From the NCBI GenBank assembly GCA_024516035.1, contig CM044964.1:26746866-26810865 (forward strand): DNA of 64,000 bases, given 5' to 3'. Numbering within the stretch: position 1 is the first letter of the stretch; each line of letters begins with the position of its first letter. The position numbers and the translations under genes were made by a program. This DNA is from Bactericera cockerelli (lineage: Eukaryota; Arthropoda; Insecta; Hemiptera; Triozidae). Positions 5,175 to 64,000 of this stretch are shown piece after piece. Under the pieces are notes generated by a model that saw nothing but the letters and a program-made list of their open reading frames with translations, was not told the DNA's origin and ran no database searches.

Positions 5175-5735
5175 GCTAAATTCATATTTCAGGTTATCCA
5201 GCTGTTTCTTTCTCCATTACATTTTTGCTAAATTCATATTTCAGGTCGTCTAATGTTTTTATCTCCATTACATTTCCGCTAAATTCATATTTCAGGTCAT
5301 GTAGCTGTTTCTTTCTTCATTACATTTTTGCTAACTTCATATTTCAGGTCATGTAGGTAACTGTTTCTTTCTTCATTACATTTTCGCTAAATTCACATTT
5401 CAGGTCATGTCGGTAACTGTTTCTTTCTTCATTACATTTTCGCTAAATTCATGTGTCAGGTCATGTAGGTAACTGTTTCTTTCTTCATTACATTTTCGCT
5501 AAATTCACATTTCAGGTCATGTAGGTAACTGTTTCTTTCTTCATTACATTTTCACTAAATTCATATTTCAGATCATATAGCAGTTTCTTTCTTCATTACA
5601 TTTTCGCTAAATTCAAATTTCAGGTCATGTAGGTAACTGTTTCTTTCTCTATTACATTTTTGCTAAATTCATATTTCAGGTCATGTAGGTAACTGTTTCT
5701 TTCTTCATTACATTTTCGCTAAATTCATATTTCAG
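5175..5735 (+). repeat. Minisatellite made of duplicated splice acceptors
   Basis: About ten tandem units of 50-56 bp run TTTCTTTCTTCATTACATTT, then CGCTAAATTCATATTTCAG, then GTCATGTAG. Each carries a pyrimidine-rich tract, an AG acceptor and the first bases of the exon that starts at 5736, so the array ends on a real 3' splice site. Several units continue GTCATGTAG|GTAACT, placing a donor-like site 9 nt after the acceptor. Confidence 0.9.
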
Positions 5736-8700
5736 GTCATGTAGCTGTTTCCTGCACACTTGGAGGGACCGCAGGCTGTTCCGCTTATTGCAGTCTGTTT
5801 GAAGGCAAAACGAAAATCGGAAAATGTGTGAGGGAAGGTTGGGGTAACTGGAAAACCTGCGTGTGCGAGGAAAAGCCAGTGGAAAAAGTGGATTACACGT
5901 ATCAGATCAATACCTTGCGCATGGGGTTGCTGCAACTGTTGGGTCTGTACAGATACACTGACCCGCTGAGGGATTGGGTGAGGTCTGCGTTCACCAGAAC
6001 AGACAACATGCAATATGTTATCTTCGATAAGAGAACGATTTATAGTCTGTTAAGCGTGCTCAGACCACACGTCAAGTTCGATGTGAATTTTTACAAGAGT
6101 TTCTTCTCCACTCTGTTCTTGGATAGAGAGTCCAAGATCCCCGAGAATGGTATCGAAAATGCCGCGCAGAAAATGTTTACTGTGGGCGAAAATTGGGACG
6201 AAAGAACTATGTTGGAATCTCTGGACGAAATATTTAAGACCAACATCAACGCGACATCGTTTGATTACAACCCGACGTATGTTCAGAAGTTAGTGGATAT
6301 TTTCTTGCCGTTCTTAGAACCAGAGGACTCACAGGTTCAGGAAATTGACGAAAACAACGAAAAGACGTTGACAACGCGTCACGCGGATGACTATAAATTT
6401 CAGCCAAACTCGAAAAGTGTAAAATATCGTGTTATAGAACCAGGTACTGACAAGAAGACCGTGAAATACAAATTAATAGGACCCGATAGTACTCGCAATG
6501 ACAAGAATAATGTGAAATACAGTTTTATAAATCCCGATGGTATCACAAATGAGAAAAAGAATATGAAATACAGTATTATAAATCCCGATGGTACCACAAA
6601 TGACGAAAAAAATATGAAATACCATATCATGAATCCCGATGGTACCACAAATGACGAAAAAAATATGAAATACCATATCATGAATCCCGATGGTACCACA
6701 AATGACAAGAACAATGTTAAACACAGTATTATAAAATCCGATGGTACCACCGATGGCAAAAGTGTTGAGAAATTCAACGACATAGAACTCGATAGAGCGG
6801 ACGACAAAACTGTGAAATCCACAGTTCGTCCGTTACCCGTTTCAAATAACCCAACTGGTGATTCTGGCGAAACAAACTCTGAATCAGGAAAGAATGACAT
6901 GACTTTAAGTGAACATGAAATCAATGACAAAGACAAAACTAATGAAAAAACTCGTGACATTGACTACAAAGACACTAGCATACGCTCCGGACAATTTTGA
7001 GAATTCGGTAGGGATAAACAGAGCAATATCACCGGTTGATTACGATGAAAATGGTTCCAATATGGGAATATTGAACAAAAACCTTGTGGGTAAACCGTTA
7101 GATACTAAATCTGAAAAGAATAATGTTAATTTTAAACAGTTCCCAATAAATACTGAATTAGGTCAAAATAATGTGAATATAAATTTAAACCCCGTAAATT
7201 TTGTTTCGGACTCCGAAAAAACTAACCTTGATATTAATTTGAAACTGGAGCCATTAGATTCTGGTATGAGTAAAGAATACATGAAAGTTACTGGTGATAC
7301 ACCGACTGGACAAGGTGAATCCTATCTAACAACACCTGGATCAGGTCGTACTGATTCCAAAATTAAACAAGTAAATTCACAAGTACATGTACCTTTACGA
7401 ACTTTGAATGGAGGATATATAAACAGTGATTCTTATAGACCTAGAAGAGTGGTATCCCAAATGAAGCCAATAGAGAGCCCAGGAAGAAATCAGAATGGTG
7501 TATCGACTATTACCCCAAATAGCAATCGCATAAGAACAGCACCTTTAGAAAGAAATGCCATTGAACGTATAGAACCGTATAGAAGAAACATAAATCCACC
7601 AACCAAAGATCTGAACTCAGTAAATGGTTTTGATTATTCGAACAGAGAACTAGAATTAAACCCCAATCACCGTCAAATTGAAACTACTGAATGGAGTAAA
7701 TTTCCGATAATAGTCAACACTAATAGTCTTAAAAACAACAATGACAACGAAGAACTAAATCCTAACCTAAGAAGAAATCCTGTACATAATAGAAAAGAAG
7801 ACCTGAGATCTGACCCAATAAAAACAAGTCACAACAACAATGATCTAAGAAGACTTACTAACACTAATAACGAAAAAGAACCAAATCCAAACCCAACTGA
7901 TAATGGTCCTTATTACAACAACAATGAAAAATTGAGACCTGAATCAGGAAGAACTACTGGTCCTAACCACAATAATGAGGAAATGAGGCCTAACCTTGAG
8001 GAAAATATCAGTTCTTACAACAACAAAGAAGTAAGGCCTGAACTTAGTGGAAATACTAGTCCTTTTAACAGAAACAATGGAAATATACCGGAACAATATC
8101 AAGGAGATCGAAATGGTGAACCAACCGGATTGTTTTTCAGACATCCTTTGGATAATCAGATAAACTCTTTAATAAATACTGAACCGTACAGATATCAAAG
8201 TCCAGACGTTTGGCCATCATCGACAGGTATTCAGGAACCACTGACAGATACTCAGCAACCATCTACAAGAATAAGGGAGCGATCAACAGGTATGCCTCAC
8301 GTAACAGAAAATCCTGTTCCAAACGAAAATGAAGACTTGTGGTCTGACCCAAGAAAAAATACTAGCCCACAAAACAACAACAATGAAGAATTTAGACATG
8401 GTAGATATGAAAGTCCACCACGTTTTCAACAACCATCGAGAGATACTCATCAAACATGGACAGATACTCGGCAACCATCGAAAGGTATTTGGGAACCATC
8501 GAACGGTATTCAGCACCCTTCGACAGTGAATACTAATCCGTATAGTATGCAGCACCCTTCGACAATGAATACTGATCCGTACAGATATCAACGTTCACAC
8601 AATTGGCCATCATCAACAGATATTCAGCAACCATCTACGAGGATAAAGGAACCATCGACAGGTTTACCTCACGTAACAGGAAATCCTGTTCCTAACGAAA

Positions 8701-16019: not shown

Positions 16020-17873
16020 ATTCCATTGCTCCTCTTTATCTCTCTCTTTCTTTATATTTTTTTTTCTCTCTCTCTCTCTTTCTTTATATTTTTTTTCTCT
16101 CTCTCTCTTTATATTTTTTTTCTCCTTCTCTCTTTCTTTCTTTATACTTTTTTCTCTCTCTCTAGCTCCCTTTTCTCTATCTCAGTCTTTCTCTCGATAT
16201 ATAACTTTTCTCTGTCTCTTTTTCTCTCTTTCTCTATTTTTCTTTCTTAGCCTCTCTCCCCCTCACTCCATCAATACATTCTCCTCTCTCTCTCCCTCTC
16301 TCTCTCTCTCTCTCACTTACTCATATTCTCTCTCTCTCTCACTTACTCATATTCTCTCTCTCTCACACTTACTCATATTCTCTCCTTATTCTCCCTCTCT
16401 CTCTATCTCACTTACTCATATTCTCTCTTTATTATCCCTCTCTCTCTCCCTTTCTCTCTCACTTACTTATATTCTCTCTTTATTCTTCCTCTCTCCCTCT
16501 CTCACTTACTCATATTCTCTCTCTGTCACTCATATTCTCTCTCCCCCTCACTCCATCAACACATCTTCCTCCCTCTCCTCTCCCTCTTCTTCCTCTCCTT
16601 GTGCTTCCCGTGCAGATACTTCTCCCAGGTCTCTCTCTCTCTCTCTCTCTCACACTCATATTCTCCCTCTCACTCACATCCTCTCTCTATTCTCCCCCTC
16701 ACTCCATCAACACATCCTCCTCCCTCTCCTCCTCTTCCTCCCTCTCCTCCTCCCTCTCCCTCTCCCTCCTCTTCCTCTCCTTATGCTTCCCGTGCAGATA
16801 CTTCTCCCAGGAGCGATGCTTCAGCGTCCGCAGGTCGCTCTCGCCGGCGATAGCGTCCAAGTAGCGACCCAGTCGCTTTCTCTCTCTCTCTCTTTCTTTC
16901 TTTATATATATATTTTTTTTCTCTCTCTCTCTCTTTCTTTATATATATTTTTTTCTCTCTCTCTCTCTTTCTTTATATTTTTTTTCTCTCTCTCTAACTC
17001 CCTTTCTTTTTCTCTATTTCTGACTTTCTCTCGATACATAACTTTTCTCTGTCTCTCTTTCTCTATTTTTCTTTTTTAGCGTCTCTACCCCTCAATACAT
17101 TTTCCTCCCTCTCCCTCTCTCACTTACTCATATTCTCTCTTTATTCTCCCTCTCTCTCTCTATCTCTCTCTCCCTTTCTCTCTCACTTACTTATATTCTC
17201 TCTTTATTCTTCCTCTCTCCCTCTCTCACTTACTCATATTCTCTCTCTCTCACTCATATTCTCTCTCTCCATTCTCCCCCTCACTCCATCAACACATCCT
17301 CTTCCCTCTCCTCCTCTTCCTCCCTCTCCTCCTCCTCCCTCTCCCTCTCCTTATGCTTCCCGTGCAGATACTTCTCCCAGGAGCGATGCTCGAGCGTCCG
17401 CAGGTCGCTCTCGCCGGCGATAGCGTCCAAGTAGCGACCGAGTCGCTTTCTCTCTCTCTCTCTCTTTCTTTCTTTATATATATTTTTTTTCTCTCTCTCT
17501 CTCTCTCTTTCTTTATATATACTTTTTTTTCTCTCTCTCTCTCTTTTTCTTTATATATACTTTTTTTTCTCTCTCTCTCTCTTTCTTTATATTTTTTTTT
17601 TCTCTCTCTCTAACTCCCTTTCTTTTTCTCTATCTCTGCCTTTCTCTCGATATATAACTTTTCTCTGTCTCTTTTTCTTTCTTAGCCTCTCTACCCCTCA
17701 CTCCATCAATTCATTCTCCGCTTTCTCTCTCTCTCTCTCTCTTTAATCGCCCTCTCTCTCTCTTTATTCTCCCTCTCTCTCTCTCTCTCTCTCTTTATTC
17801 GCCCTCTCTCTCTCTCTCTCTCTCTCTTTCATATCCTCTCTCTCTCACTCATATCCTCTCTCCACTCTCCCCC
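16020..17873. repeat. CT-rich microsatellite carrying copies of the UBLCP1 3' end
   Basis: Mostly (CT)n and CT-rich variants. It contains repeated blocks matching the last part of UBLCP1 exon 5 on the minus strand: about 16783-16875 and 17353-17450 (full block encoding [16 protein letters not shown] to EKYLHGK) and a shorter one at about 16595-16632. CTCCATCAACACATC, which encodes the gene's last residues, recurs beside the blocks. They are tandem copies of the gene's 3' end, lying downstream of its stop. Confidence 0.85.
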
Positions 17874-18221
17874 TCACTCCATCAACACATCCTCCTCTCT
17901 CTCCTCCTCTTCCTCCCTCTCCTCCTCCCTCTCCCTCTCCCTCCTCTTCCTCTCCTTGTGCTTCCCATGCAGATACTTCTCCCAGGAGCGATGCTCCAGC
18001 GCTCGCAGGTCGCTCTCGCCGGCGATAGCGTCCAAGTAGCGACCCAGTCGCTTCAGTTCGCGATCGGTTGCGCGATTGAGATGCGCATCACGAAACGGTC
18101 GGATGCGCAGCCCGTTGCGTGGATTCATGAGGAAGTTGCGTCGGATGTCGTCGAGCATGATCGTGTTGGAGGGGGAGTAGACGCGTGGGAACTTGCCCCA
18201 GATCACGCCCAGGGGTTTCAC
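17874..18221 (-). CDS. Ublcp1: UBLCP1 exon 5 (terminal)
   Basis: Acceptor CTCTCTCAG|GTGAAACCC, TGA at 17876-17874; 115 residues. Its first 73 bp are the part duplicated nine times upstream. The final roughly 25 residues ([13 protein letters not shown]..., ending DVLME) are read from CT-rich repeat and lengthen the protein beyond its relatives. Confidence 0.9.
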
Positions 18222-19176
18222 CTGAGAGAGGGAACAATAATAATAATAATAATAATAATACAGTAATACAGTCGAGCATGATGGTGTTGGAGGGGGAGTA
18301 GACGCGTGGGAACTTGCCCCAGATCACGCCCAGGGGTTTCACCTGAGAGAGGGAACAATAATAATAATAATAATAATAATACAGTAATACAGTCGAGCAT
18401 GATGGTGTTGGAGGGGGAGTAGACGCGTGGGAACTTGCCCCAGATCACGCCCAGGGGTTTCACCTGAGAGAGGGAACAATAATAATAATAAAGAAATGGA
18501 ACAATAATAATAATTTGGATTCACCTGAGAGAGGAAACAATCATAATAATAAAGAAATGGAACAATAATAATAATTTGGATTCACCTGAGAGAGGAAACA
18601 ATAATAATAATAAAGAAATGGAACAATAATAATAATTTGGATTCACCTGAGAGAGGAAACAATCATAATAATAAAGAAATGGAACAATAATAATAATTTG
18701 GATTCACCTGAGAGAGGAAACAATAATAATAATAAAGAAATGGAACAATAATAATAATTTGGATTCACCTGAGAGAGGGAACAATAATAATAATTTGGAT
18801 TCACCTGAGAGAGGGAATAATAATAATAATTTGAATTCATCTGAGAGAGGGAATAACAATAATAATAATAATAATACAGTCAAATCCCCCAGATCACGCC
18901 CAGGGGTTTCACCTGAGAGAGGGAATAACAATAATAATAATAATAATAATAATAATACAGTAATACAGTCGAGCATGATGGTGTTGGAGGGGGAGTAGAC
19001 GCGTGGGAACTTGCCCCAGATCACGCCCAGGGGTTTCACCTGAGAGAGGGAATAATAATAATATAATAATAAATAATAATAATACAGTAATACAGTCGAG
19101 CATGATCGTGTTGGAGGGGGAGTAGACGCGAGGGAACTTGCCCCAGATCACGCCCAGGGGTTTCACCTGAGAGAGG

Positions 19177-19215
<39 letters not shown>

Positions 19216-19306
19216 AGTAATACAGTCGAGCATGATCGTGTTGGAGGGGGAGTAGACGCGAGGGAACTTGCCCCAGATCACGCCCAGGGGTTTCACCTGA
19301 GAGAGG

Positions 19307-19339
<33 letters not shown>

Positions 19340-19431
19340 AGTAATACAGTCGAGCATGATCGTGTTGGAGAGGGGAGTAGACGCGAGGGAACTTGCCCCA
19401 GATCACGCCCAGGGGTTTCACCTGAGAGAGG

Positions 19432-19470
<39 letters not shown>

Positions 19471-19561
19471 AGTAATACAGTCGAGCATGATCGTGTTGGA
19501 GGGGGAGTAGACGCGAGGGAACTTGCCCCAGATCACGCCCAGGGGTTTCACCTGAGAGAGG

Positions 19562-19603
<42 letters not shown>

Positions 19604-20456: not shown

Positions 20457-20495
<39 letters not shown>

Positions 20496-29536: not shown

Positions 29537-29939
29537 TTAAGATTATTAAAGTTTGAGAAGGAACAATAAGAAGATGAAACATTTGGGTGGGAAAATTTAG
29601 AAAAATTCCCTTTTTCTTTTACACGTCGTACCTCTCCGGAACCAGACCTATCGTCGTCATGGTTATTATGAAATCAGCTGTTTTTTGTTATGACTCAGGA
29701 TTTTAAAAAATTGAAATGTTTATTTTAATTTCATGGATTCCTGAATATTGAAAATCTGTCGGTCCAAAATTTGAAATTTTCTGAAGGTTATCGGCTCTGT
29801 TTCCTGTAAGGTTTTACTATTTACTTCCTACTGCTTTTATCAAAAATATCGTGTCGTCCTGCGAAAAAAGTCAAAGCTTCCCTGAGGTATTTATATTTTA
29901 CTTACATTCATCTTCCATTTCATTTATTCAAAATCAGCC

Positions 29940-49700: not shown

Positions 49701-52700
49701 TACCATACATATGTCCTAAATAAAGGACGGGGTTATTACCTATGGCAATCTCTTCCACCCAACCCGTTTGGGTTTGGGTTTGTTTGCGATGAAACTTCTA
49801 ATATCCCGATAGCTCCCGAGTTGGTACCGTTAGCTCAGTGGTTAAGGCGTCGGCCTGGTAATCCTGGGGAACCGACGTCAGTAGCTTGATGGATAATGCA
49901 TCGGACTTATAATTTGGAGGTCGGTGGTTCAAGCCCCAAGTTAAGCATAGATTTAGTTATGTGAGTTTGATTAGTTGTGATATCACGATTAAGATCAACA
50001 CAAACTTATGACAATTTCTTTTTATGATCAACACAAACCTATGACAATCTCTTTTTATTATATTATTAGTGGACTGGGGGACTATAAACACTTAAACTGG
50101 GAGTAGACCAGCAGTCTGGCTGGGGGACTATAAACATGGAGTAGACCAGCATTGGCTTGGTTCTGGGGGCCCTTGTCAATTATTAGCCTCCTTGTAAAGA
50201 CAGTGGTAGAAGTGCTGAGTCATTCCTCCACTGTCTGGCTACCATCGTTCACCCTATGATGATATTATTAGTATGGTGAAAGCATTTAATGGAGGGCTTT
50301 TCAAATTCAAAAGGGTCACGTTTAGTTTCTCATTTTAAAATGGCCATTGTGATATGTGCAAAGGAAAGTTCAGACTGTTAAACACGGCCTTGAGAAGCTG
50401 AAGGTTGGCTTTTGTTTGTCCTAAAAAAAATATCCTAAAAATTATCTAGGTCATAATATGAACCGAATTTGGGTGATTAGCACCAATTACAGGTCAAGTT
50501 TGGTGATTAGCACCCAAATATAGGTCAAGTTTGGAGGGCCAATTGTGGGCCAGACGAATTGACCGGCTGTGTCCGAGGTCAGCATCATATCGCGCAAACT
50601 TCTACTAATTATACTGATAAGAAATTATGATAAGAATTCGCAAATTTAGCGATAGCATTCTTTTCAATGTTGCATCGTGAATTTTGTTTCCCCGACGGCG
50701 TGGAAAAACTTTCTTAAACACACGGTTTTATTTTTATTTTTTAAATCAAGAGCAAATTTAATGTAGGTACAATAGTTATAAGTTATCATACCTGTGTTAA
50801 TCACTTTCGCGGTGTCACATCTTCTCAAACTCGCTTTACTAAATCTTTGCTGACACCGGGACTTGAACCCCCGACCTCCAGGTTACAAGTCCGACGCCTT
50901 ATCGATCAAGCTATACTGTGAGGTCGGTACAATAATATTATTATATTGAGAGATGCGGATAAGAATGTTAAAATTAAACCTGATCAGAACACTGGCCTCG
51001 TTTCGCAGATTTTCAAATGATTCAATTATTTTTTTCTGTAACTATTGACTTTTTCGGAAAAAAAAGTGAGTGGTTATAAGTTTCGCCACACTTTTTCGTC
51101 TGGTGACCACCTAATAATAAGACTGTGAGGGTTAGGTGGTAGAAAATGCTTTCAGCATGAACCTCGCCTGGTTTAGTTACCTTCCACTAAAGAGTACTAC
51201 CTATTATTATTATTCTCCACATTGTGTATTATGTACTTATTCAACGCGCAAAGTGCGATTTTTCCGCTACTGATAATAGAGATAACACTGATAAGAAATA
51301 GGAGAATACCTACAATACATTGAATACGTAATTCCTATACAATAATATAGTACTAAACTGCTATTATAGATTCATCATTGTGGAATTATCTTGAAATGTT
51401 CTGCGTTTGAATCAGTGGCGTAGCCAGGGGGGGGGGAGGGGGGTTTAGGGACAAACCCCCCCCCCCCCCAAAATTTTCAAGAAACCCCAGCAAAGATGGA
51501 ATATAATTATGTTAGGAGTGATTTCTGAACCCCCCCCCCCCCCCCGAAATGTAGGTCTAGCTACGCCACTGCTTTGAATGTACTTAATTACAATTAATAT
51601 ATTAAAACGTTCGTTTTGAGGAAAACGCCTATATATTACCTAAATGACTAGCCGTCTTTCCGCATTCCGCTACGGTAGGAGAGTTTAAACTATCAAAGGT
51701 GCGTTTTATCAATCACATTAAACGAAGTTCTAAATCACAAATCAGAGTTCATTGTTAATATTGTGTGTTCAGTTCCTGTTTTATAATTTATATAATCTGT
51801 TCCCTCCGCACATGTGAGACTGGCATTTCCGACCCTACTCACGCTGGGTGAGGTTAATGTGCGTAACTGGTACGATTCCCTAAAACCCCCGCCCTAATCC
51901 AGGATTTTAAATCAAATAAAATTGTTGGCGTTAAGAAGGGTATCCAGCCGTAAAAAATGTGCCAAAACCAACCAACCTGAACCATGAGGTTGAACAACGT
52001 CGACCCTGATTGAGCGGGATAAGACAGAGTAAAAGAAGAGGTAATCCGTCTCTTGGAGTCGAATTTTGGATTAGATTTGGGCCCCCGAATTATGAAACAG
52101 GATTTGTTAATCTTAGTGGACACTATCCCTTATTTTTCACCTTGAAAACAACTGTAGAGGTCATATCTAGCTGCGTATTAACTCTGTGGCGTAACGGAGC
52201 TGTGGCCAGCCTCCGTGACGGAAAATCTCATTTTAGAATACCTATCGGTCAGCTGATAAAATCTAAGGGCGGAATTAATAGACAACATCAATAACTTAAG
52301 TCGTTTGTAATCTTACACAGTACGCAATCCGTGACTTAGTGCCACAGAGGTATTACAAAAACGTCTATTAATTAAGCCCTAAATCTAATCCTGTTTCATA
52401 ATTCGGCCCTACTAGTAGATAGTAGATAATACCTTGACTATCACGAGAAATTTTCACATCACAATTCTCACCACGTTGACTTCCTCGTCCATTCGTTGCG
52501 CAACCGTTAACACCTTGACTCCCTCGTCCATTTTCCGCACAATCGCTAACACGTTCACTCCCACACCGGTTCGCCGCAGCTTTATTCTGTCTGCGGCGGG
52601 GTCCCCGCTCCTCCTGAACAAAGAGTGGGTTCATGCGGACCTGGAAACACTTCCGCAGGCGGCAGTGCGGGCACCAGTTGCGGCGAGTCTTGTCCACGCC

Positions 52701-55129
52701 GCAGTGTCCTGATCCTGCGGACGATAGACAAATGGATCATCTGATTAAATATTTCTGCGGATGATAGAGAAATGGATCATCTGATTAAATATTTCTGCGG
52801 ATGATAGAAAAATGGATCATCTGATTAAATATTTAATCTCAAATTAGGACGCAGTTTTACATAGGTTATTTATCCGAAATTTTGGACAAAAAAGTCAAAT
52901 AATAGGTTCACGTAGTAAACACTGGAGGCCAAATGGGAGCCGTTTTGTTGAAAATTGAAAACGATTTTTCTATTTTTATTGAAACAAAGCAAGGCTCTAG
53001 AAATTTTGTAGAGTCGTTAAGGAAATATATTTGAGTTCAGTAGTGAAATTTGGTGATCGTGTAAGCTAAGGGGGCCGTGATAAAAAATCGAAAAAGGGCC
53101 AAAAATAAAGGACCGGTTGATAATTTTCAATTAAAACCTATCAAGTGGGGTATTGAATAAAAGGCTGCGATGTCATGCTTGATTGAACATTTATAACGCG
53201 ATAGTTGATTCTGTGTGAGGTTTACAGTTCACAGAACTATTAGTAGGTAATAAAAAGTAAACTCAACTTGTCTGTCCCGGTAGCTCGGTGGTAAAGGCGG
53301 CACTCTGCGAATCCACAGGTTCCAGAGGTCATGGGTTCAAAACCCAGCTGGGACATAACAAGTTATCCTCCCATTTGGGATTTTTACCACACAATTGTAT
53401 GTCTTGAGCTTACTGCTGGAATAATGGGACTTTAAGGGTGGAATTAATAGACGTTTTTGTAATACCTCTGTGGCGCTAAGTCACCGAATGCGTACTGTGT
53501 AAGATAGGGAAAACCAACACTTACCAACGACTTAAGTTATTGATGTTGTCTATTAATTCCGCCCTAATAGTCCTTATCGGGCGGTATAAATAAGGCGATA
53601 TTATTATAACTTCCCGAGGGTACACTTACCTATACAAGGGTACACTTACCTATATACAAGTGCACACTTACCTATACAAGTGCACACTTACCTATACAAG
53701 TGTACACTTACCTATACAAGTGCACACTTACCTATACAAGTGTACACGATGTTCTTCCGAACACTCCTCTTGAAGAAGCAAGAGCAGCCATCACAGCAGT
53801 GGACGCCGTAGTGCTTGCCATAGGACTTGTCACCACAGACCTCACACTGGATGGGTATGGGTAGAGAACGTCCTGCAAAATTTAGAGGGTAAAACCCCGT
53901 CGTGATATGACCATGCGTTTGAAAGCGACGGTAAAACAACAACAACAAAAATCACAATAAGAATCTCGGAATTATAGGCAAAAATAAGGTATTAGGATCA
54001 GGCGCGGCCGGTGCTAAGGAGCTGCGGAACTGCAGCACCCCCAGACCCAAAAGAAAAAGCTGATTTTATCAAGTCCTAGCTCATACACAATGAAAATTAT
54101 CACACACTTCTAGATTAATTAATCCATAATTATTACGATTGGCATGGTAAACAAACTCAAACGCTTTAGATACTAAGAGATAGACTCTATAAATGCCATT
54201 TTAGTCTGGTTTATGTGGCAGCACCCCCGAATATTTTTCTCACCGGCCGCGCTTGATTAGGATATTAAGAGATATGGAAAAAGTCCTAATTTTTGCGCTT
54301 CCCACTATAAATTGTGATATAATAACACAAAGAAACACATTATTATAATAAGAATCTCAAACATCTTCAATAATTATTTGTGTCTAGACTAGCACAAAAA
54401 ACTAGCCGGCAAATCTTGAAACGGCACTTTATCATTTTACCGATTCCTCTAAAAATTATTTGTTCAGTGAGAGGGATAGGTAAGCCGACAAATTGCTGCC
54501 AAGATTTGCCGTCTAGTTTTGACTATATGCTTTGCCCTAATTAGATTTAGGGCGGAATTAATAGACGTTTTTGTAATACCTCTGTGGCGCTAAGTCACGG
54601 ATTGCGTACTGTGTAAGATAGGGAAAATCGACACTTACCAACGACTTAAGTTATTGATGTTGTCTATTAATTCCGCCCTTAGGGTCGTATGCAGAGTCCT
54701 CACTGTAGGGATGCCTGGGTCATTTGCCCCTTCAGCTGATTTTGTTATTCAGAGACGTTTCTTGAAAGCGTCTGTGCGCATGTGCATTCAGATGTTTCTT
54801 TAATAAATAATTGTCAAAGTCGAAGTATTCCTTATAGCAAGCTCGGGACCACCCTATAGTGAACCCTATAGAGATCACAAAATCGTCTCTGCATACTAGC
54901 CTTAATATTTTTATTATTAGATACAAAAAACCTGCCTCGGTAGCTTGATTGATTAGGCGGCGGACTTGTAATCTGGAGGTCGGTAATTCGAGTCCCAAGT
55001 TCGGTAAAAAATTAGCTACATGTGCTCAAGTAGTTGTGCCATCACAAGATTGATTAACACAAATATGATACCTTTACCTATTAGATCAAAAAAAGAAAAA
55101 CACAAACAGACACATATTTACTTACCCAT
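37564..55129 (-). CDS. Hr83: Hr83-like nuclear receptor (NR2E group), 7 exons
   Basis: Ligand-type transcription factor; insect Hr83 belongs to the NR2E group with tailless and dissatisfaction. Coding exons (minus): 55129-55126, 53872-53732, 52714-52433, 48922-48695, 40286-40094, 38854-38733, 37733-37564. All six junction phases agree and give 379 residues. Zinc finger 1: C11, C14, C28, C31, with P-box region CDGCSCFFK (Cys where most NR2E members have Gly); finger 2: C47, C53, C63, C66, then RLRKCF and [19 protein letters not shown] and RRNWCPHCR point to Hr83 rather than tailless. The hinge is long and Asn/Ser/Gly-rich. The ligand-binding domain has [30 protein letters not shown] and ends [18 protein letters not shown], a plausible helix 11-12. 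Exon 1 (ATGG) is inferred from phase and donor only. A BEL/Pao element sits in intron 4. Confidence 0.85.
38006..38145 (+). mobile_element. tRNA-derived SINE, family P
   Basis: GTAGTCAAGTGGTTAGGGCG (A-box) and GGTTCGAATCCCACCC (B-box), then TCATTAATTTGAGTTTGTGA. A longer copy lies at 56568-56790. Confidence 0.8.
38150..38732 (-). repeat. 30-bp array of duplicated splice donors at Hr83 exon 6
   Basis: About 20 tandem units, consensus on the gene strand ATCATACATCAGATGTTAG|GTAAGTTATTT. The exon itself ends ATCATTCAGCAGATGTTAG|GTAAGTT, so each unit repeats about 19 exon bases plus the donor. The unit is 30 bp, so the frame is kept; the unspliced reading stays open for one full unit (ten residues, [10 protein letters not shown]) and then stops. 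Units nearest 38.15-38.33 kb are almost identical; the middle is degenerate. Confidence 0.93.
38733..38854 (-). CDS. Hr83: Hr83 exon 6 (LBD helices 7-8)
   Basis: Acceptor CATTCCTTCCAG|CTGCTT, donor GATGTTAG|GTAAGTT. Encodes [22 protein letters not shown]1-like LINE hairpin lies in the intron immediately upstream, and the donor starts a long array. Confidence 0.88.
38919..38990. repeat. Hairpin upstream of Hr83 exon 6
   Basis: CCGAGTATTTCATAGAACCG / CGGTTCTATGAAATACTTGG, with GGTACTTCAGTAATCGATT repeated directly after it. A stem of about 28 bp, 65 bp from the acceptor. Confidence 0.75.
39104..39373 (+). mobile_element. SINE family F in Hr83 intron 5
   Basis: CGATTAGCTCAGTAGTTAAG, CCGGGTTCGATCGCGCG, CATCAGAGGGGAGGCATACT, AAAGGCTGTGAAACACTCAT. 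Confidence 0.82.
39405..39885 (-). mobile_element. SINE family E interrupted by SINE family B
   Basis: SINE-E halves at 39405-39610 (TGCCCTTCCTAACGCCAACG to TAGGGCCGGAAAT) and 39814-39885 (GAAATGCTAGTCTCAAG) flank a complete minus-strand SINE-B (39611-39813). GAAAT on both sides is the apparent duplication. So B was active after E inserted. Confidence 0.85.
39888..40080 (+). mobile_element. CR1-like LINE 3' UTR
   Basis: GTTGGGTGGAAGAGATTGCCACAGGCAATAACCCC then T-rich tail and AATAAAGC, (AAT)n end. Confidence 0.65.
40094..40286 (-). CDS. Hr83: Hr83 exon 5 (LBD helices 3-5)
   Basis: Acceptor TTTTCCTCAG|ACCTAT, donor CTACAG|GTGAGA. Encodes [16 protein letters not shown] and [15 protein letters not shown], the ligand-binding-domain signature region. 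Confidence 0.9.
40381..40864 (-). repeat. 3' LTR
   Basis: Bounded by TG...CA (plus-strand view TGAATTAATG to GCGTGAACA). Same length and, by eye, same sequence as the other LTR. Confidence 0.95.
41243..43285 (-). CDS. BEL/Pao Pol with large in-frame deletion
   Basis: The frame is open from about 43370. Aspartic protease region ([17 protein letters not shown] catalytic triad), then the start of reverse transcriptase ([24 protein letters not shown]). The text passes directly from ...[14 protein letters not shown] to integrase core sequence ([34 protein letters not shown]) and the family's C-terminal domain. The catalytic Y-x-D-D block of reverse transcriptase, RNase H and the integrase zinc domain are missing, yet the frame is intact. 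The protein cannot copy the element by itself. Confidence 0.9.
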   Translation of the reverse strand: MSTVQVRIPDRHGVYHSFRFILDSGSQSNLILESARKKLGLPLNKDATKTIKGLGMGSNPVHGQVNFAFASRLDNRVKYSIHALVVDKIVDRLPSQPVDMSNLHYLEQLPLADDFMKPDVVSGILGAQIFPSLILGHRVTSPSNSVVALNTVLGYVVMGQVPVNSIDIEDSTSNSFCAFQEPHVDSLIKRFWEIENVSAPVMLNSDDRKCEELYTSSVYRNDNGSYTVSLPFKSSPDELGDSYHLARNRFFSQERKLESHAELRSAYNDVIKEHLDEGYLCVAPDQSDRSGFFIPHHMVARPDKASSKFRCVYDASMQSSSTKSLNDLLYAGPKLYTDLFVVLLNFRLFPIVMIADIRKMFLQIKLNPDDWKYQKILWRFHPHDELLTYMMTTVTFGLTCSPFLALRTVRQLAEDEAHNFPSDLSTPTFLDAFKRFLARRGPCQSVLSDHGTNFVGAKNALDELYTLLNSREYKVRFSEELSVRRITWQFTPPTGAHFNGISEANVKAVKSHLYRCVGTQILSLEELCTISAQIEALLNSRPLCVLSSDPSEPSVLTPAHFLTQIPLESLPASDVVDENPNRLTRYKLLDQIIQTFWKRWNSEYLHDLQSREKWNTSSSPLSPGQIVLIKQDNVPPLHWSLAKVVETYPGKDGVARVALVKTQKGELKRPVNKLCPLPSQ
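43360..44727 (-). CDS. BEL/Pao Gag-like protein
   Basis: 455 residues starting ATG at 44727. Contains the DUF1759-type region ([30 protein letters not shown]) and a C-terminal set of Cys/His knuckles ([40 protein letters not shown]). Ends just past a run of seven C, where the pol frame takes over one base back. Confidence 0.9.
   Translation of the reverse strand: MAEGKLTVLIAKRDSLFKVLQEANDFAQSMTQANENTLKGLRRKINMLDSVYTSFCQVVDDINMLQIEIKPDSKPNYQMLESFTTIYGYVKDKFDEVNGKLKKSDISQANISTVNASSEVKVKLPALELPSFNGESFADWVIFYESFKSMIHVRTDLSNAQKVQYLISRLSGRALSSCAGIPATPENYNIIFDNLVKKYNDKRCLSSSYLDSIINFKPLKIESGNSLSMFTDKFCATVLALKALKIENLDDYIFVHLACTKLCPETVKTFEMSLKKDELPTFDKLLSFLQEHAKILNRVSPSTSSSSSSSINNSSGGLGTSGVKSGFPLVKAKGPHTFVVNSTSSASCEICHNDHPIFKCSKFLKLSPQDRFCKIKQYSLCVNCLSGAHKVNECKNNSTCFNCKIKHNTLLCFKDHKSDCTKSGPRELKAKASANSRNSQHLGNVENHNSPPLPR
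45049..45532 (-). repeat. 5' LTR
   Basis: As the 3' LTR. Position relative to gag makes it the promoter-bearing copy. Confidence 0.95.
45575..45830 (+). mobile_element. SINE family E
   Basis: GCCTCCGTGGCGTAAAGGTTG, GAGTTCGATCCCCGG, GGCTGGGTGAGGTTAATGTG. Its 3' end is replaced by a minus-strand SINE-B piece. Confidence 0.8.
45831..45945 (-). mobile_element. SINE family B fragment
   Basis: GTAAAAATCCCATATTAGAT to AAGCTACCGGGACAGA; minus strand, lacks the 3' third. Followed by a 40-bp SINE-A scrap (45964-46004). Confidence 0.75.
46005..47819. other. Hr83 intron 4, unique AT-rich DNA
   Basis: No exon, repeat family or RNA gene I can support. T-runs and short open frames only. Confidence 0.4.
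47820..48160 (-). mobile_element. LINE reverse transcriptase fragment
   Basis: Minus strand around 48130-48010 reads [17 protein letters not shown] then [15 protein letters not shown], the Y-A-D-D active-site block of non-LTR reverse transcriptase. Interrupted by stops and frame changes, so dead. Confidence 0.65.
48161..48694. other. Hr83 intron 4, near exon 4
   Basis: Low-complexity ATAA runs and a possible LINE 3' tail (CACTTGTGGACCATAAGG ... AATAAATAAAATAAAC). No gene. Confidence 0.4.
48695..48922 (-). CDS. Hr83: Hr83 exon 4 (hinge)
   Basis: Acceptor GTGTTTGCAG|GTATTA, donor TATTCAG|GTAAGG, phases 1/1. 76 codons rich in Ser, Asn and Thr with no domain; accepted because splice sites, phase and position between the two domains all fit. 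Confidence 0.75.
48966..49175 (-). mobile_element. SINE family A, partial
   Basis: TTATTATGTCACAATTTTAAG, GCCACTGGTCGCTG, CACGAGGTATGTGGACCCCG; the tRNA-like head is missing. Confidence 0.75.
49352..49508 (-). mobile_element. SINE family D
   Basis: TTAAGTTATCATACATGTG to GATCAAGCTACTGAGGTCGGT, minus strand. Confidence 0.8.
49541..49705 (-). mobile_element. SINE family B
   Basis: ATATCGCCTTATTTATACC to GTGCGGCCTTTACCA, with a deletion in the middle. A CR1-like LINE hairpin piece follows (49717-49772). Confidence 0.75.
49820..50035 (+). mobile_element. tRNA-like fragment joined to SINE family D
   Basis: 49825-49869 reads GTACCGTTAGCTCAGTGGTT and GCCTGGTAATCCTGGGG, a tRNA-like 5' half without its B-box; SINE-D begins at 49871 (ACCGACGTCAGTAGCTTG, GGTTCAAGCCCC). 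Confidence 0.7.
50075..50268 (+). mobile_element. Repeat family G, copy 2
   Basis: Only two 38-bp VNTR units, then GCATTGGCTTGGTTCTGGGG and CCACTGTCTGGCTACCATCG. Confidence 0.8.
50269..50769. other. Hr83 intron 3
   Basis: Non-coding; a short direct repeat TTTGGTGATTAGCACC ... ATAGGTCAAGTTTGG at 50468-50540. Confidence 0.4.
50770..50928 (-). mobile_element. SINE family D
   Basis: Minus strand: TAAGTTATCATACCTGTG, ACCGGGACTTGAACCCCCG, ATCAAGCTATACTGTGAGG. Confidence 0.8.
51098..51215 (+). mobile_element. SINE family P, 3' part
   Basis: TGGTGACCACCTAATAATAAG, GTTAGGTGGTAGAAAATGC, AACCTCGCCTGG. Confidence 0.7.
51413..51571. mobile_element. hAT-like MITE J, copy 2
   Basis: CAGTGGCGTAGCCAGG and CTAGCTACGCCACTG ends, G/C homopolymer interior, flanked by GTTTGAAT and CTTTGAAT (7 of 8). 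Confidence 0.85.
51788..52042 (+). mobile_element. SINE family E, 5'-truncated
   Basis: CTGTTCCCTCCGCACATGTG, CGCTGGGTGAGGTTAATGTG, ATCCAGCCGTAAAAAATGTG, GAGACAGAG-type tail (AAGACAGAGTAAAAGAAG). Confidence 0.8.
52078..52410. mobile_element. MITE L copy 2 with MITE H nested
   Basis: CCGAATTATGAAACAGGATT ... TAATCCTGTTTCATAATTCGG ends. MITE H (52267-52379, TAA duplication both sides) is inserted in it. Confidence 0.78.
52433..52714 (-). CDS. Hr83: Hr83 exon 3 (zinc finger 2, hinge)
   Basis: Acceptor CGTCCGCAG|GATCAG; donor CAAG|GTATTA. Encodes [26 protein letters not shown] and a hinge with three degenerate NGRGSQ(R/G) repeats. The donor is followed within 25 bp by MITE L. Confidence 0.88.
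52715..52840 (-). repeat. Triplicated splice acceptor at Hr83 exon 3
   Basis: Three tandem units of about 42 bp on the gene strand: AAATATTTAATCAGATGATCC then ATTTCTCTATCATCCGCAG. Each ends in a usable CCGCAG acceptor; the last abuts exon 3. No exon bases are included. Confidence 0.92.
52841..53271. other. Hr83 intron 2
   Basis: Unique non-coding sequence; nothing recognised. Confidence 0.4.
53272..53607 (+). mobile_element. SINE family B with MITE H inserted
   Basis: SINE halves 53272-53435 and 53565-53607 are joined by MITE H 53436-53564. The target TAA of the SINE (GGACTTTAATAGTCC) is duplicated, which fixes MITE H as an insertion with a 3-bp duplication. Confidence 0.93.
53615..53731 (-). 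repeat. 20-bp array of duplicated donors at Hr83 exon 2
   Basis: Six tandem units GTAAGTGTGCACTTGTATAG on the gene strand. Each recreates the exon end CACTTGTATAG|GTAAGTG. Unit length 20 is not a multiple of three; use of the next donor meets TAG in frame. Confidence 0.92.
53732..53872 (-). CDS. Hr83: Hr83 exon 2 (zinc finger 1)
   Basis: Acceptor AATTTTGCAG|GACGTT; donor TTGTATAG|GTAAGTG. Encodes [18 protein letters not shown] to VRKNIVYTC. The donor is the first of a tandem series. Confidence 0.92.
53999..54255. mobile_element. hAT-like MITE M, intact
   Basis: CAGGCGCGGCCGGTG ... CACCGGCCGCGCTTG, 257 bp, flanked by a perfect 8-bp duplication ATTAGGAT. Confidence 0.92.
54550..54678. mobile_element. 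MITE H, copy 5
   Basis: GGGCGGAATTAATAGAC / GTCTATTAATTCCGCCC with TTA on both sides. Confidence 0.88.
54687..54896. mobile_element. MITE K, single copy
   Basis: GTATGCAGAG ... CTCTGCATAC, 210 bp, lies 8 bp from MITE H. Confidence 0.85.
54933..55075 (+). mobile_element. SINE family D
   Basis: TGCCTCGGTAGCTTGATTGA, GGAGGTCGGTAATTCGAGTCC, GATTAACACAAATATGATAC. Confidence 0.8.
55126..55129 (-). CDS. Hr83: Hr83 exon 1, four coding bases (inferred)
   Basis: On the minus strand GACTGTTATGG|GTAAGTA supplies an ATG plus one base and a strong donor, exactly the phase exon 2 needs; the protein would start MGRSLPIP. Chosen because no longer open first exon is visible between here and exon 2. Needs cDNA. 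Confidence 0.5.
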
Positions 55130-57362: not shown

Positions 57363-57699
57363 CCTAGTTAGGTCTTACTTAATACTTATTCTTAAATTCT
57401 TCTTTTTTTTTTAACCAATCTGGATTTTTTATTTCGTCCCCTGTATAGTGTACCTATATGTATTGTATACCCACCCTGTATGATTCCTCAAGTGTTCAGC
57501 AGGTAGGTAAATAATAAATCGGAAAAGTTATCAGACAATCGGACTGAAAGAAAAATAATACATAGAAAGCACTTTTAAGAGCTCTCGAAAGTGCCTCGTT
57601 TTCTTCGGAAAAGCTTTGTGGTCTTTGTGGAGAAAGTGGCGAGTGGGTAACTTTTTACCTGTCAATTGTTATCAATAACAATAGAGGAGTTTAATATTT

Positions 57700-58365
57700 G
57701 AAAGCACTGCAGACAGCGTTGTAAAACACCTAAAGGGAAATGAGTGTCCAAAAACACCTGAATATGGAACAAGTGTTTAAAAAAACATCTGAACGAAGGA
57801 ATTGTTATTTGAAAGCACTGCAGACAGCGTTGTAAAACACCTAAAGGGAAATGAGTGTCCAAAAACACCTGAATATGGAACAAGTGTTTAAAAAAACACC
57901 TGAACGAAGGAATTGTTATTTGAAAGCACTGCAGACAGCGTTGTAAAACACCCAAAGGGAAATGAGTGTCCAAAAACACCTGAATATGGAACAAGTGTTT
58001 AAAAAAACACCTGAACGAAGGAATTGTTATTTGAAAGCACTGCAGACAGCGTTGTAAAACACCCAAAGGGAAATGAGTGTCCAAAAACACCTGAATATGG
58101 AACAAGTGTTTAAAAAAACATCTGAACGAAGGAATTGTTATATGAAAGCACTGCAGACAGCGTTGTAAAACACCTAAAGGGAAATGAGTGTCCAAAAACA
58201 CCTGAATATGGAACAAGTGTTTAAAAAAACACCTGAACGAAGGAATTGTTATTTGAAAGCACTGCAGACAGCGTTGTAAAACACCCAAAGGGAAATGAGT
58301 GTCCAAAAACACCTGAATATGGAACAAGTGTTTAAAAAAACACCTGAATAATTTTAGACTCGGTT
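57700..58365. repeat. 111-bp satellite, six copies
   Basis: Unit GAAAGCACTGCAGACAGCGT ... CTGAACGAAGGAATTGTTA, nearly identical copies. On the minus strand each unit has three AGGTGTTTT boxes (after TTCGTTC, CCATATTC, TTCCCTTT), roughly 30 bp apart. The minus frame stays open through all six because 111 is a multiple of three. Confidence 0.92.
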
Positions 58366-61455: not shown

Positions 61456-64000
61456 GTGAGTACAATCAGAATAGTTTCATCATCATATGGTGGCGTCATC
61501 GTGAACGATGGTAGACAGACAGTGGAGGAATGACTCACCATTTCTACCACTGTCGAGGAAGGTAATAATTGACAAGGGCCCTCAGAACCAAGCCAATGCT
61601 GGTCTACTGCGTGTTTATAGTCCCCCAGCTAGACTGCTGGTCTACTCCCTGTTTATAGTCCCCCAGCCAGACTCAGAATTGTTTGAACAGGTAAAATAGG
61701 TATGCAACATGGCGACTACTAGTACTTGTCTATGTCACTAAGCACGTGAAACACATCAAAATCAACTCTGATGACATTGGCAAAAGAACATTTCTAACAT
61801 TATCAGAAACACAAAACTATGAACATGGATAACATCAGCTTTACCACCACCAACAACAACAACAACTACAACAAAATGAATCTAATCACCATTCTTGGCA
61901 AGAGCAACACCGACAATGAAACCACCACAAAAATTATCTGACGACTTTTAACCAACGTTTCGAATGACCTCAATAGCCATTTGGTGATTAGGTTCATTTT
62001 GTTTCTAAAACCAAAATTGGTTTTTGGTTTTGTCAATTTTCTCTGCATTTGTCTCTATCTTGCGATTGATCAAACCATCTGAGCCTCTTCTTCTTGGTCT
62101 AGCTCCTCTTGTACTGACTCTATCTCCTCCTCCACCTCCTCAGGTCCCCGCAACCTCCTCCTCTTCCTCTTGGTCTAGCTCTTCTTGTACTGACTCTATC
62201 TTCTCCTTCACCTCCCCAGGTCCCTGTAACCTCCTCCTCTTCCTCTTGGTCTAGCTCCTCTTATATTAACTCTATCTTCTCCTTCACCTCCCCAGGTCCC
62301 TGTAACCTCCTCCTCTTCCTCTTGGTCTAGCTCTTCTTGTACTGACTCTATCTTCTCCTCCACCTCCTCAGGTCCCCGCAACTTCCTCCTCTTCCTCTTG
62401 GTCTAGCTCTTCTTGTACTGACTCTATCTTCTCCTCCACCTCCTCAGGTCCCCGCAACTTCCTCCTCTTCCTCTTGGTCTAGCTCTTCTTGTACTGACTC
62501 TATCTCCTCCTCCTCCTCTTCCTCTTGGTCTAGCTCTTCTTGTACTGACTCTATCTCCTCCTCCTCCTCTTCCTCTTGGTCTAGCTCTTCTTGTACTGAC
62601 TCTATCTCCTCCTCCTCCTCTTCCTCTTGGTCTAGCTCTTCTTGTACTGACTCTATCTCCTCCTCCTCCTCTTCCTCTTGGTCTAGCTCTTCTTGTACTG
62701 ACTCTATCTCCTCCTCCACCTCCCCAGGTCCCCGCAACCTCCTCCGCTTCCTCCGCCACTCCAAGTACCGCATGGAGGTGTGCAAGAAGAAGATCTCCAA
62801 CTTCTACCTGGTGAGGTCCAAGATTCCCGAGTGGTTCCAGAACAGAGACCTGAGGCAACCGGCGTTGCGAGAATTGCTGGAGTTAGGGTAAGGAATAATG
62901 ATAATAATAACCAAGAGAATGGCTGGAGTAAGGGTAAAGAATAATGATAATAATAACCAGGAGAATTGCTGGAGTTAGGGTAAGGAATAATGATACTAAT
63001 AACCAGGAGAATTGCTGGAGTTAGGGTAAGGAATAATGATACTAATAACCAGGAGAATTGCTGGAGTTAGGGTAAGGAATAATGATACTAATAACCAGGA
63101 GAATTGCTGGAGTTAGGGTAGGGAATAATGATACTAATAACCAGGAGAATTGCTGGAGTTAGGGTAAGGAATAATGATACTAATAACCAGGAGAATTGCT
63201 GGAGTTAGGGTAAGGAATAATGATAATAATAACCAGGAGAATTGCTGGAGTTAGGGTAAGGAATAATGGTAATAATAACTAGGTCAGATGATAATAATAA
63301 GTTGTCTCGCCAGAGGACTATGAACAGAGAATAGACTAGCCAACCCTTACAAGGCAGGCTAGAGCTTGCAGTTTCCTAAAGGTTTAATGGCTTATAAAGA
63401 AAAGTCCAAGTCCTCATGATGGTTGATCGCACATAATAGAAATATGTGGCTCAGGAGGAGCCAACTTTGAAATAAAGTTGGCTGGAGACCATCACTTACC
63501 CCTCAGCTGTAGCCAAGCTGGCAACAACAAAACAACATAGTAATAAGTCACAATAGATCTTATTAGTTCGCATTGTTGTTGTAGCGGCAAAAGCTATGAC
63601 GAGGTGTGTGATAGTCTCTACCCGCGTTATTATTAAAAGTTCAGATGGAGTATGGGTCCTTTGCAATTAATGTAAACATTTTCGGAGCATTGTCCAGCTA
63701 TTCCCTGCCCACATTCTACATGTGAATTATTTGCAGGACCAACTATTTGCAGGAGCAACCATCGTGCGGACTTTTGGCTTTCTTTTTTTGCATAAGCCTA
63801 TTGAAGAGTAGTAAATTTAATGGAGTCTTAATTTCATAAATATTTTAGCAACAAACACTTCCAATAAAGTACTTCATGAAAATTATGGTGTACAACAATT
63901 TTTATGAAGATGGTGAAGGACTTTTCACCAATCACATGGAGCATTGTGATTGATGTAAAATCATTGTCCTCTTTTAAATAGTATCCACAATTTGAGTACC
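61326..64000 (+). CDS. CRAL-TRIO domain protein, 5' part (runs off the window)
   Basis: SEC14/alpha-tocopherol-transfer-like lipid carrier; the family binds and moves hydrophobic ligands such as retinoids, tocopherol or phosphoinositides in the cytosol. Exon 1 (61326-61455) starts ATGGAG and encodes LTEEDYKFLLDNGKYSE and LKELQEWLKENPHIG, the helical start of the CRAL-TRIO N-terminal domain. Exon 2 (62728-62887) joins in phase 1 and encodes PRNLLRFLRHSKYRMEVCKK, YLVRSKIPEWFQNRDL, the diagnostic N-domain helix. The lipid-binding CRAL-TRIO domain itself must lie right of the window. TTGATTCCAG at 61298-61307 may be the acceptor of a 5' UTR exon. Exon 2 has splice-site arrays on both sides. Which of the many insect paralogues this is cannot be told. 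Confidence 0.88.
61485..61672 (-). mobile_element. Repeat family G, copy 3
   Basis: Minus-strand copy with two VNTR units, 30 bp into the CRAL-TRIO intron 1. Confidence 0.78.
61673..62084. other. CRAL-TRIO intron 1
   Basis: A CCACCAACAACAACAAC run near 61840 and the palindrome AAACCAAAATTGGTTTTTGG at 62008-62027; otherwise nothing. Confidence 0.4.
62085..62727 (+). repeat. Array of duplicated acceptors at CRAL-TRIO exon 2
   Basis: Ten or so units. Five carry CACCTCCYCAG|GTCCCYGYAAC plus about 20 bp of exon start (acceptors near 62143, 62219, 62295, 62371, 62446); then four 48-bp units lack the acceptor (TCTAGCTCTTCTTGTACTGAC, CTCCTCCTCCTCTTCC); then comes the real site at 62727. In each decoy the exon-like part meets TAG about 11 codons in. 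Confidence 0.92.
62728..62887 (+). CDS. CRAL-TRIO protein coding exon 2
   Basis: Acceptor CCTCCCCAG|GTCCCC, donor GAGTTAGG|GTAAGG, phase 1 in and 2 out. This acceptor rather than the five upstream look-alikes is chosen because only it leads into an open frame; the others stop within about 11 codons. Confidence 0.9.
62888..63285 (+). repeat. 46-bp array of duplicated donors at CRAL-TRIO exon 2
   Basis: About eight units after the exon, AATTGCTGGAGTTAGG|GTAAGG then AATAATGATAATAATAACC. Each repeats the last roughly 16 exon bases and the donor. Reading through the first donor meets TAA at once. Confidence 0.93.
63286..64000. other. CRAL-TRIO intron 2
   Basis: No exon recognised before the window ends. 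Contains a weak family-G-like piece (CAGAGGACTATGAACAGAGAATAGACTAGCC, split at 63310-63340). Confidence 0.45.

What the first reader, a model, noticed from the sequence alone, without database searches (positions are those of the whole stretch)
5175..63285. Tandem arrays that copy splice sites at seven exon junctions in four genes
Seen directly: arrays of 20, 30, 42, 46, about 55, about 75 and about 125 bp units each end exactly on a real splice site and repeat it, usually with 15-73 bases of the exon. Donors and acceptors, both strands and four unrelated genes are affected; unit sequences are unrelated, so this is not one mobile family. Other tandem arrays in the window are fewer than those at junctions. 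A neutral reading is that duplication spanning a splice site survives because any copy still works. A stronger reading is a process that creates or keeps such arrays, for example replication or repair trouble at co-transcriptional structures, or selection for redundant splice sites. I know of no described system of this type; that is a statement of my knowledge only.
Basis: partly seen in the sequence, partly recalled or inferred. Interest (0 to 1): 0.92.

Follow-up and report, generated by a model that had tools for sequence, protein, structure and literature searches.

The report
Repeated splice sites in psyllid genes
In this plant louse, many gene segments (exons) carry a run of near-identical copies of their own splice site; such runs were known from a few lancelet genes and one human gene but look common here, and almost none of the extra copies could be used without ruining the protein.

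Summary
Confirmed, and it reaches beyond the window. The source is a psyllid (Hemiptera). Seven arrays (units of 20, 30, 40, 46, 56, 76 and about 125 bp) lie on splice junctions of four genes: 7 of the 24 junctions mapped in the window.

One 24-mer recurrence test gave 6 of 24 (window), 9 of 38 (flanks), 5 of 27 (five MCM genes) and 3 of 24 (three CCT genes): 23 of 113. Intronic 24-mers outside junction arrays recur at 2.0%. Against present-day array coverage of introns (16.4%), however, 23 of 113 is not significant (p 0.16).

The kind is known: lancelet mirages, and a donor-site VNTR in human ABCA7. Ten literature searches (listings, open-licence papers) showed me no insect mirage.

The reading that any copy still works is not supported: 234 of 240 distal copies would shift the frame or add a stop, so redundancy is an unlikely benefit. 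Four of 7 coding 3' ends also carry arrays, so splicing may not be the cause.

Best account: tandem duplications straddling an exon edge, expanded by slippage or unequal exchange, tolerated because the exon-proximal copy stays intact. Why edges are favoured is open.

The parts
5169..5751 (+). 56-bp acceptor array (11 copies, TTTCAG|GTCATGTAG) at exon 2 of the defensin-like gene; used junction 5735/5736
4514..4607 (+). exon 1 (reads as a signal peptide) of the defensin-like gene, donor 4607/4608, no array
   Evidence: read from sequence, no homologue seen
18150..20575 (-). acceptor array of UBLCP1 exon 5: 26 copies of CTCTCAG|GTGAA or close; units about 121-133 bp with 72-73 exon bases, plus nested 36- and 61-bp units; used junction 18221/18222
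16783..18053 (-). tandem duplication (about 600-bp units) of the 3' coding end of UBLCP1 with its TC-rich flank; extra coding copies 17350-17442 and 16783-16872
38149..38752 (-). 30-bp donor array (21 copies, GATGTTAG|GTAAGT or close) at an Hr83 ligand-domain exon; used junction 38732/38733
52715..52834 (-). 40-bp acceptor array (3 copies, CCGCAG|) at the second DNA-binding-domain exon of Hr83; used junction 52714/52715; no exon bases in the unit
52434..52562 (-). 39/42-bp in-frame coding repeat near the unsettled donor of the same Hr83 exon; possible eighth junction array, not counted
53620..53747 (-). 20-bp donor array (6 copies, CACTTGTATAG|GTAAGTG or close) at the first DNA-binding-domain exon of Hr83; used junction 53731/53732
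62084..62727 (+). 76-bp acceptor array (6 copies, CC[TC]CAG|GTCCC) of CRAL-TRIO exon 2, interrupted by a 51-bp sub-array lacking the AG; used junction 62727/62728
62869..63283 (+). 46-bp donor array (9 copies, GGAGTTAGG|GTAAGG or close) of the same exon; used junction 62887/62888
57695..58348 (-). 111-bp x5.9 array with CAG|GT motifs upstream of Hr83; no exon shown, counted as non-junction

Best explanation
These are mirage-type minisatellites. A short segment straddling an exon edge is duplicated in tandem (inferred). Slippage or unequal exchange then expands and homogenises it, to 2-47 copies in the cases seen (arrays shown, process inferred). The copy next to the intact exon keeps the functional site and is the one that gives the known protein (shown by orthologues and reading frames, not by RNA of these genes). 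The other copies become intronic decoys, nearly all with an intact GT or AG (shown). They are tolerated because the gene still makes a correct product when the proximal site is chosen; how splicing picks it among near-identical sites is unknown. Exon edges are over-represented as origins, for a reason not established. As 4 of 7 coding 3' ends also carry an array, the bias may concern edges of constrained sequence rather than splicing as such.
For: Anatomy and copies. Gene models from psyllid and other insect orthologues; MCM7. All 62 junctions mapped in the 264-kb stretch are GT/AG. 24-mer test: 6 of 24 and 9 of 38, 5 of 27, 3 of 24; background outside junction arrays 110 of 5590; binomial p against that rate 1e-12 (15 of 62), 4e-8 (9 of 38), 2e-4 (5 of 27), 0.011 (3 of 24). 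Seed null, each array counted as one unit: 14 of 25 non-exonic arrays in seven gene spans touch a junction against a mean of 1.91, reached in 0 of 20000 runs; MCM7 plus the second CRAL-TRIO gene, both outside the window, 5 of 8 against 0.98, reached in 4 of 20000. Distal copies unusable: 74 of 75, 160 of 165. Arrays at coding 3' ends.
Against: No RNA reads for these junctions: use of the proximal copy is inferred. Measured against present-day array coverage of introns (16.4%), 15 of 62 gives p 0.07, 20 of 89 gives 0.08 and the whole sample, 23 of 113, gives 0.16; the strong results rest on counting each array once or on leaving junction arrays out of the background. MCM7 alone is weaker: 4 of 7 against 1.10, 226 of 20000. 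MCM genes L029, L031 and L032 (18 junctions) and CCT gene L034 (10 junctions) have none by the 24-mer test. Flank and MCM junctions were placed by hand from homology; MCM7 was searched with a recalled sequence. The MCM family was chosen after MCM7 had been seen to carry arrays, and flank genes lie beside the window.
Confidence: 0.68

Rival explanations
1. A process tied to splicing or transcription (R-loops, RNA hairpins, stalled polymerase, RNA-templated repair) makes tandem duplications specifically at splice junctions.
For: About tenfold excess at junctions over the intron background outside junction arrays; donors and acceptors both hit, 9 of 30 and 7 of 32 in the window and flanks by the array list; hairpins in stretches of three of seven window arrays.
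Against: Four of seven arrays show no structure; of seven single units folded as DNA one reaches z -3.0, two -1.3 and -1.7, four none; arrays also lie at coding 3' ends where no splice site is involved.
Confidence: 0.2
2. Pure tolerance: tandem duplications arise evenly and those across junctions are merely not removed.
For: Exon-interior copies are rare, as selection would make them (28 of 1308); against present-day coverage the excess is not significant for the whole sample (p 0.16).
Against: Duplications inside introns should be tolerated as well, yet 1007 of 1117 locally recurring intronic 24-mers belong to junction arrays; seed null 14 against 1.91.
Confidence: 0.14
3. Selection keeps the arrays because redundant splice sites make splicing robust.
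For: 80 of 82 copies in the window and 158 of 165 distal copies outside keep GT or AG; in the two most diverged arrays the splice core ranks low in divergence (3 of 30, 9 of 56).
Against: 234 of 240 distal copies would shift the frame or add a stop; in the other seven tests the core ranks 5 of 20, 32 of 40, 55 of 76, 36 of 46, 5 of 36, 45 of 61 and 63 of 127.
Confidence: 0.05
4. The arrays are used: distal sites divert a share of transcripts to decay and so set gene dose.
For: In human ABCA7 use of the second donor copy retains one unit and gives a premature stop (PMC5954066 passages); nearly all distal copies here would shift the frame or add a stop.
Against: No RNA evidence; no consistent sign of conservation of the copies.
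Confidence: 0.05
5. Assembly artefact.
For: Long tandem arrays are hard to assemble; one coding frame break at about 6.9-7.0 kb may be a base error.
Against: Units differ between loci and copies differ within arrays; an assembler has no reason to favour exon edges; recurring junctions were found on 5 of 7 contigs sampled (C3, C7, C8, C10, C12; none on C1, C4).
Confidence: 0.03

Closest known systems
Mirages of amphioxus (globins BflGb6 and BflGb9, Adh3, troponin C, PGBD5)
   Same: [quoted passage not shown] PMC3902484 passage).
   Different: Psyllid instead of lancelet; 23 of 113 sampled junctions here, against a handful of loci named in those passages; arrays also at coding 3' ends; no RT-PCR or polymorphism data here.
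Human ABCA7 intron 18 VNTR
   Same: 25-bp array whose first GT is the exon 18 donor; distal copy use gives a frameshift (PMC5954066 passages).
   Different: A single locus; the unit begins at the GT and so, from that passage, holds no exon sequence at its start; linked to disease risk by length.
Intron gain by tandem duplication of proto-splice sites (Drosophila, potato)
   Same: Tandem duplication that copies splice signals (PMC2891723 passages; PMC4974935 listing only).
   Different: Here arrays flank introns whose ends do not repeat each other; only MCM7 intron 9 of 30 introns looks like a candidate.
Tandem splice sites such as NAGNAG
   Same: Neighbouring alternative splice sites (abstract starts in the listing).
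   Different: Those are 2-12 nt apart; here units of 20 to about 250 bp and up to 47 copies.

Membership tests
Mirages (amphioxus) | tandem, minisatellite-like repeat | tested here: met
   TRF; window units 20-133 bp
Mirages (amphioxus) | unit spans an exon-intron boundary | tested here: met
   6 of 7 window arrays carry exon bases; the 40-bp one ends flush on AG
Mirages (amphioxus) | both donors and acceptors affected | tested here: met
   9 of 30 donors and 7 of 32 acceptors in window and flanks
Mirages (amphioxus) | many, not all, copies keep AG/GT signals | tested here: met
   80 of 82 and 158 of 165
Mirages (amphioxus) | regular splicing not disturbed | not testable with these tools
   no RNA reads; orthologues place the junction at the proximal copy
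Mirages (amphioxus) | length polymorphism and somatic instability | not testable with these tools
   one assembly only
Mirages (amphioxus) | found in a cephalochordate | tested here: not met
   BCAP31 exon 86% to Diaphorina citri; this is the lineage of discovery, not a structural criterion
Intron gain by tandem duplication | intron ends repeat the neighbouring exon ends | tested here: inconclusive
   30 introns: MCM7 intron 9 start matches exon 10 start 11 of 12, its end only 3 of 12; next best start match 7 of 12
Introner or other mobile family | related sequence at different loci | tested here: not met
   16 units, 120 pairs: only the two CRAL-TRIO paralogues share a unit (score 220); five other pairs edge past 60 shuffles with scores 15-21; none of 21 window pairs does

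The most novel reading that the evidence does not exclude
In this insect a process acting at the edges of coding sequence continually creates or keeps tandem arrays, so that about one in five splice junctions and perhaps half of coding 3' ends carry a run of decoy copies, and now and then such an array turns into a new intron (MCM7 intron 9 as candidate).
Probability: 0.33. Interest if true: 0.85.

Novelty: new member of a known kind. Interest (0 to 1): 0.62.

Why it matters
If one junction in five carries up to dozens of near-identical splice sites of which only one makes the protein, the species is a natural test of how splice sites are chosen by position alone: MCM7 has 46 further copies of one donor (45 with GT) behind the used one, and a CRAL-TRIO exon has 28 further acceptors before the last, the only one that keeps the frame. 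It also supplies many arrays for testing the proposal that introns are born from tandem duplications of splice signals. And it would show that mirages are not a lancelet oddity.

Tried and rejected
Mobile family: rejected, units unrelated except between the CRAL-TRIO paralogues. A dispersed 38-bp minisatellite exists, but none of its copies seen touches a junction.

Purifying selection on copies: a first comparison anchored on the motif looked strong but was biased by the anchoring; a wrap-around alignment without that anchor gave no consistent signal.

RNA or DNA structure as common cause: not shared by all arrays.

Motif test without annotation: 5 of 24 window and 6 of 44 flank arrays have splice-like motifs beyond shuffles at p 0.05 or less (1.2 and 2.2 expected); weak, not used.

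Slips: the copy table flagged four arrays as having lost the dinucleotide, an off-by-one corrected. One search had two junctions one base off, of which one search mended one and both; one search prints those two donors one base off.

Control that first looked damaging: intronic 24-mers recur at 16.4%; in a repeat sample 1007 of the 1117 recurring ones lie in junction arrays. Both figures are in the report.

Psyllid DNA in viral contigs: one pattern scan, none. Literature: ten searches, judged from titles and abstract starts in capped listings; no insect mirage seen; a Drosophila paper on intron gain by tandem duplication was seen in passages.
Full report
WHAT IT IS FROM. The BCAP31 exon at 29928-30413 is 86% identical to Diaphorina citri and 83% to Cyamophila willieti, and 100% over 95% of the query to an unnamed sequence P0001; the second BCAP31 exon matches P0001 at 98%. 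The host is a psyllid; I did not name the species. When the genome search answered, it placed the window at C10:26746866-26810865 of an unnamed 565-Mb assembly in 1032 contigs.

THE OBSERVATION. TRF lists 106 rows. Reading the sequence shows seven arrays on junctions. Gene models come from homology: UBLCP1 (orthologues P0241-P0243), Hr83 (P0121-P0123), CRAL-TRIO (P0213, P0229) and BCAP31 (P0001). A fifth, secreted protein is read from frame and an apparent signal peptide only; calling it defensin-like is my recall of the cysteine pattern, Pfam gave no match above a cut-off and no homologue was among the 120 rows shown. Of 24 mapped junctions 7 carry arrays: 1 of 2 (defensin-like), 1 of 8 (UBLCP1), 0 of 2 (BCAP31), 3 of 9 (Hr83), 2 of 3 (CRAL-TRIO). 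One further Hr83 donor is unsettled and was left out; a 39/42-bp in-frame repeat lies beside it.

THE COPIES. There are 82 copies in the seven arrays (11, 26, 21, 6, 3, 6, 9); 80 keep their GT or AG. Orthologous proteins run through the junctions without insert when the copy next to the exon is used (not tested for the defensin-like gene). Using another copy would be harmful: the frame stays open for 8 of 82 copies, seven of them the proximal ones. Outside the window, 165 distal copies in 13 arrays: 158 keep the dinucleotide and 5 keep the frame open, all five in one 36-bp array (one of the 13, MCM7 exon 8, gave no copy at that setting although TRF shows five units). So the idea that any copy works is not supported, and redundancy can hardly be the benefit.

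BEYOND THE WINDOW. I fetched 100 kb on each side. A codon-usage scan that masked arrays pointed to MCM7, and tblastn with a recalled human MCM7 gave 13 exons; tblastn with P0213 and P0229 gave the rest of the CRAL-TRIO gene and a second copy of it. These add 38 junctions; all 62 are GT/AG. One test was then used throughout: does a 24-mer of 16 exon and 8 intron bases recur on the intron side within 3 kb with at most 4 mismatches. Result: 6 of 24 in the window and 9 of 38 in the flanks. The test misses the 40-bp window array, whose unit has no exon base, and MCM7 exon 8. Minimum mismatches are two-humped: 15 junctions at 0-4, one at 6, 46 at 8-12.

TWO FURTHER SAMPLES. Five MCM-family stretches on C1, C12, C4, C10 and C7 were taken from profile hits (the hit list already hinted at repeats in the C7 gene). 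They hold 27 junctions, 5 recurring: three of three in L030 and two donors of six junctions in L033; 18 junctions of L029, L031 and L032 have none. Three CCT genes on C1, C3 and C8 were taken the same way, out of at least seven split CCT genes in the hit list. A script found 24 junctions, 3 recurring; three exon pairs gave no junction and three were skipped for a missing exon. In all 23 of 113.

NULLS. Intronic 24-mers at least 100 nt from exons recur at 736 of 4496 and, in a repeat sample, at 1117 of 6749; 1007 of the 1117 lie inside junction arrays, and outside these the rate is 110 of 5590, 2.0%. Exon-interior 24-mers: 28 of 1308. Against 2.0% the p values are 1e-12 (15 of 62), 4e-8 (flanks), 2e-4 (MCM sample) and 0.011 (CCT sample). 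Against present-day coverage 0.164 they are 0.07 (15 of 62), 0.08 (20 of 89) and 0.16 (23 of 113). I think the first comparison is the right one, because an array counts once as an origin however long it grows, but the second is the cautious one. A simulation in collapsed coordinates, each array one unit long, gives 14 of 25 arrays at a junction against a mean of 1.91 (0 of 20000); window genes with the rest of CRAL-TRIO 9 of 17 against 0.90 (0 of 20000); MCM7 plus the second CRAL-TRIO gene 5 of 8 against 0.98 (4 of 20000); MCM7 alone 4 of 7 against 1.10 (226 of 20000).

NOT ONLY SPLICE SITES. The 3' coding end of UBLCP1 with its flank is repeated in about 600-bp units. The end of MCM7 with its stop codon is repeated, and so is that of the first CRAL-TRIO gene; in the second a 28-bp array starts within about 25 bases after the stop. 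That is 4 of 7 coding 3' ends placed here (the other three: BCAP31, Hr83, defensin-like; no TRF array at them). This speaks for edges of coding constraint in general and against a purely splicing-driven cause.

MECHANISM. Shown: arrays, intact distal sites, proximal junction by homology, unusable distal frames, excess at edges when each array counts once. Inferred: origin by duplication across the edge, growth by slippage or unequal exchange, use of the proximal copy in RNA. Open: why edges. Splice cores are not clearly more conserved than the rest of the units (ranks 9 of 56, 3 of 30, 5 of 20, 32 of 40, 55 of 76, 36 of 46, 5 of 36, 45 of 61, 63 of 127). Structure is present in some arrays only.

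KNOWN KIND. [quoted passage not shown] lancelet PGBD5 adds a case and cites Adh and troponin C (PMC3902484, passage). Human ABCA7 has a 25-bp VNTR starting at the exon 18 donor; retention of one unit causes a frameshift (PMC5954066, passages). The original Adh paper was not read. Ten searches covered open-licence PMC papers only and were judged from listings; I saw no insect mirage in them.

INTRON BIRTH. In MCM7 intron 9 the first bases of the intron match the first bases of exon 10 at 11 of 12 positions, the highest of 30 introns (next 7); the intron's end does not match the end of exon 9 (3 of 12). The array unit holds a near-copy of this stretch. The five MCM paralogues read through this position without an intron. 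This is a candidate only; I could not look at MCM7 of other insects.

Noticed in passing
window -18955 to -17720 (C10, left flank, MCM7 intron 9): Intron start repeats exon 10 start (11 of 12) and five MCM paralogues lack an intron here; candidate intron born from an array.
   Followed up: partly
16783-18053: 3' coding end of UBLCP1 repeated in about 600-bp units with a TC-rich flank.
   Followed up: yes
37068-37245, 50119-50151, 61597-61673; L029, L031: A dispersed 38-bp minisatellite (TGCTGGTCTACTCCCTGTTTATAGTCCCCCAGC...) occurs singly or in arrays; none seen touches a junction.
   Followed up: partly
6909-7000: The long repetitive coding frame of the defensin-like gene is split between two frames; base error, frameshift or a short intron.
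   Followed up: no
41243-44742: BEL/Pao-type element (DUF1759, DUF5641) in an Hr83 intron; matching open frames at about 40.4-40.9 and 45.1-45.5 kb look like its long terminal repeats.
   Followed up: no
4773-4841 and 39730-39811: tRNA-like matches, probably tRNA-derived SINEs.
   Followed up: no
62084-62727 and 84515-87108: The two CRAL-TRIO paralogues share the same acceptor-array unit, so the array is older than the gene duplication or was exchanged.
   Followed up: partly
-59590 to -58512: An open frame that reads as a homeobox gene (my reading, no search) is followed flush by a 30-bp array; the reverse complement of that unit recurs at 163718.
   Followed up: no
L036 6309-6562 and 7547-7697; L035 6956-7080: Further array edges near CCT junctions by TRF, not counted; the first unit contains a tRNA-like promoter sequence, so a SINE may have been caught in the duplication.
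   Followed up: no
57695-58348: 111-bp array with two CAG|GT motifs per unit and an open frame on the minus strand; could be an unseen 5' exon of Hr83.
   Followed up: partly
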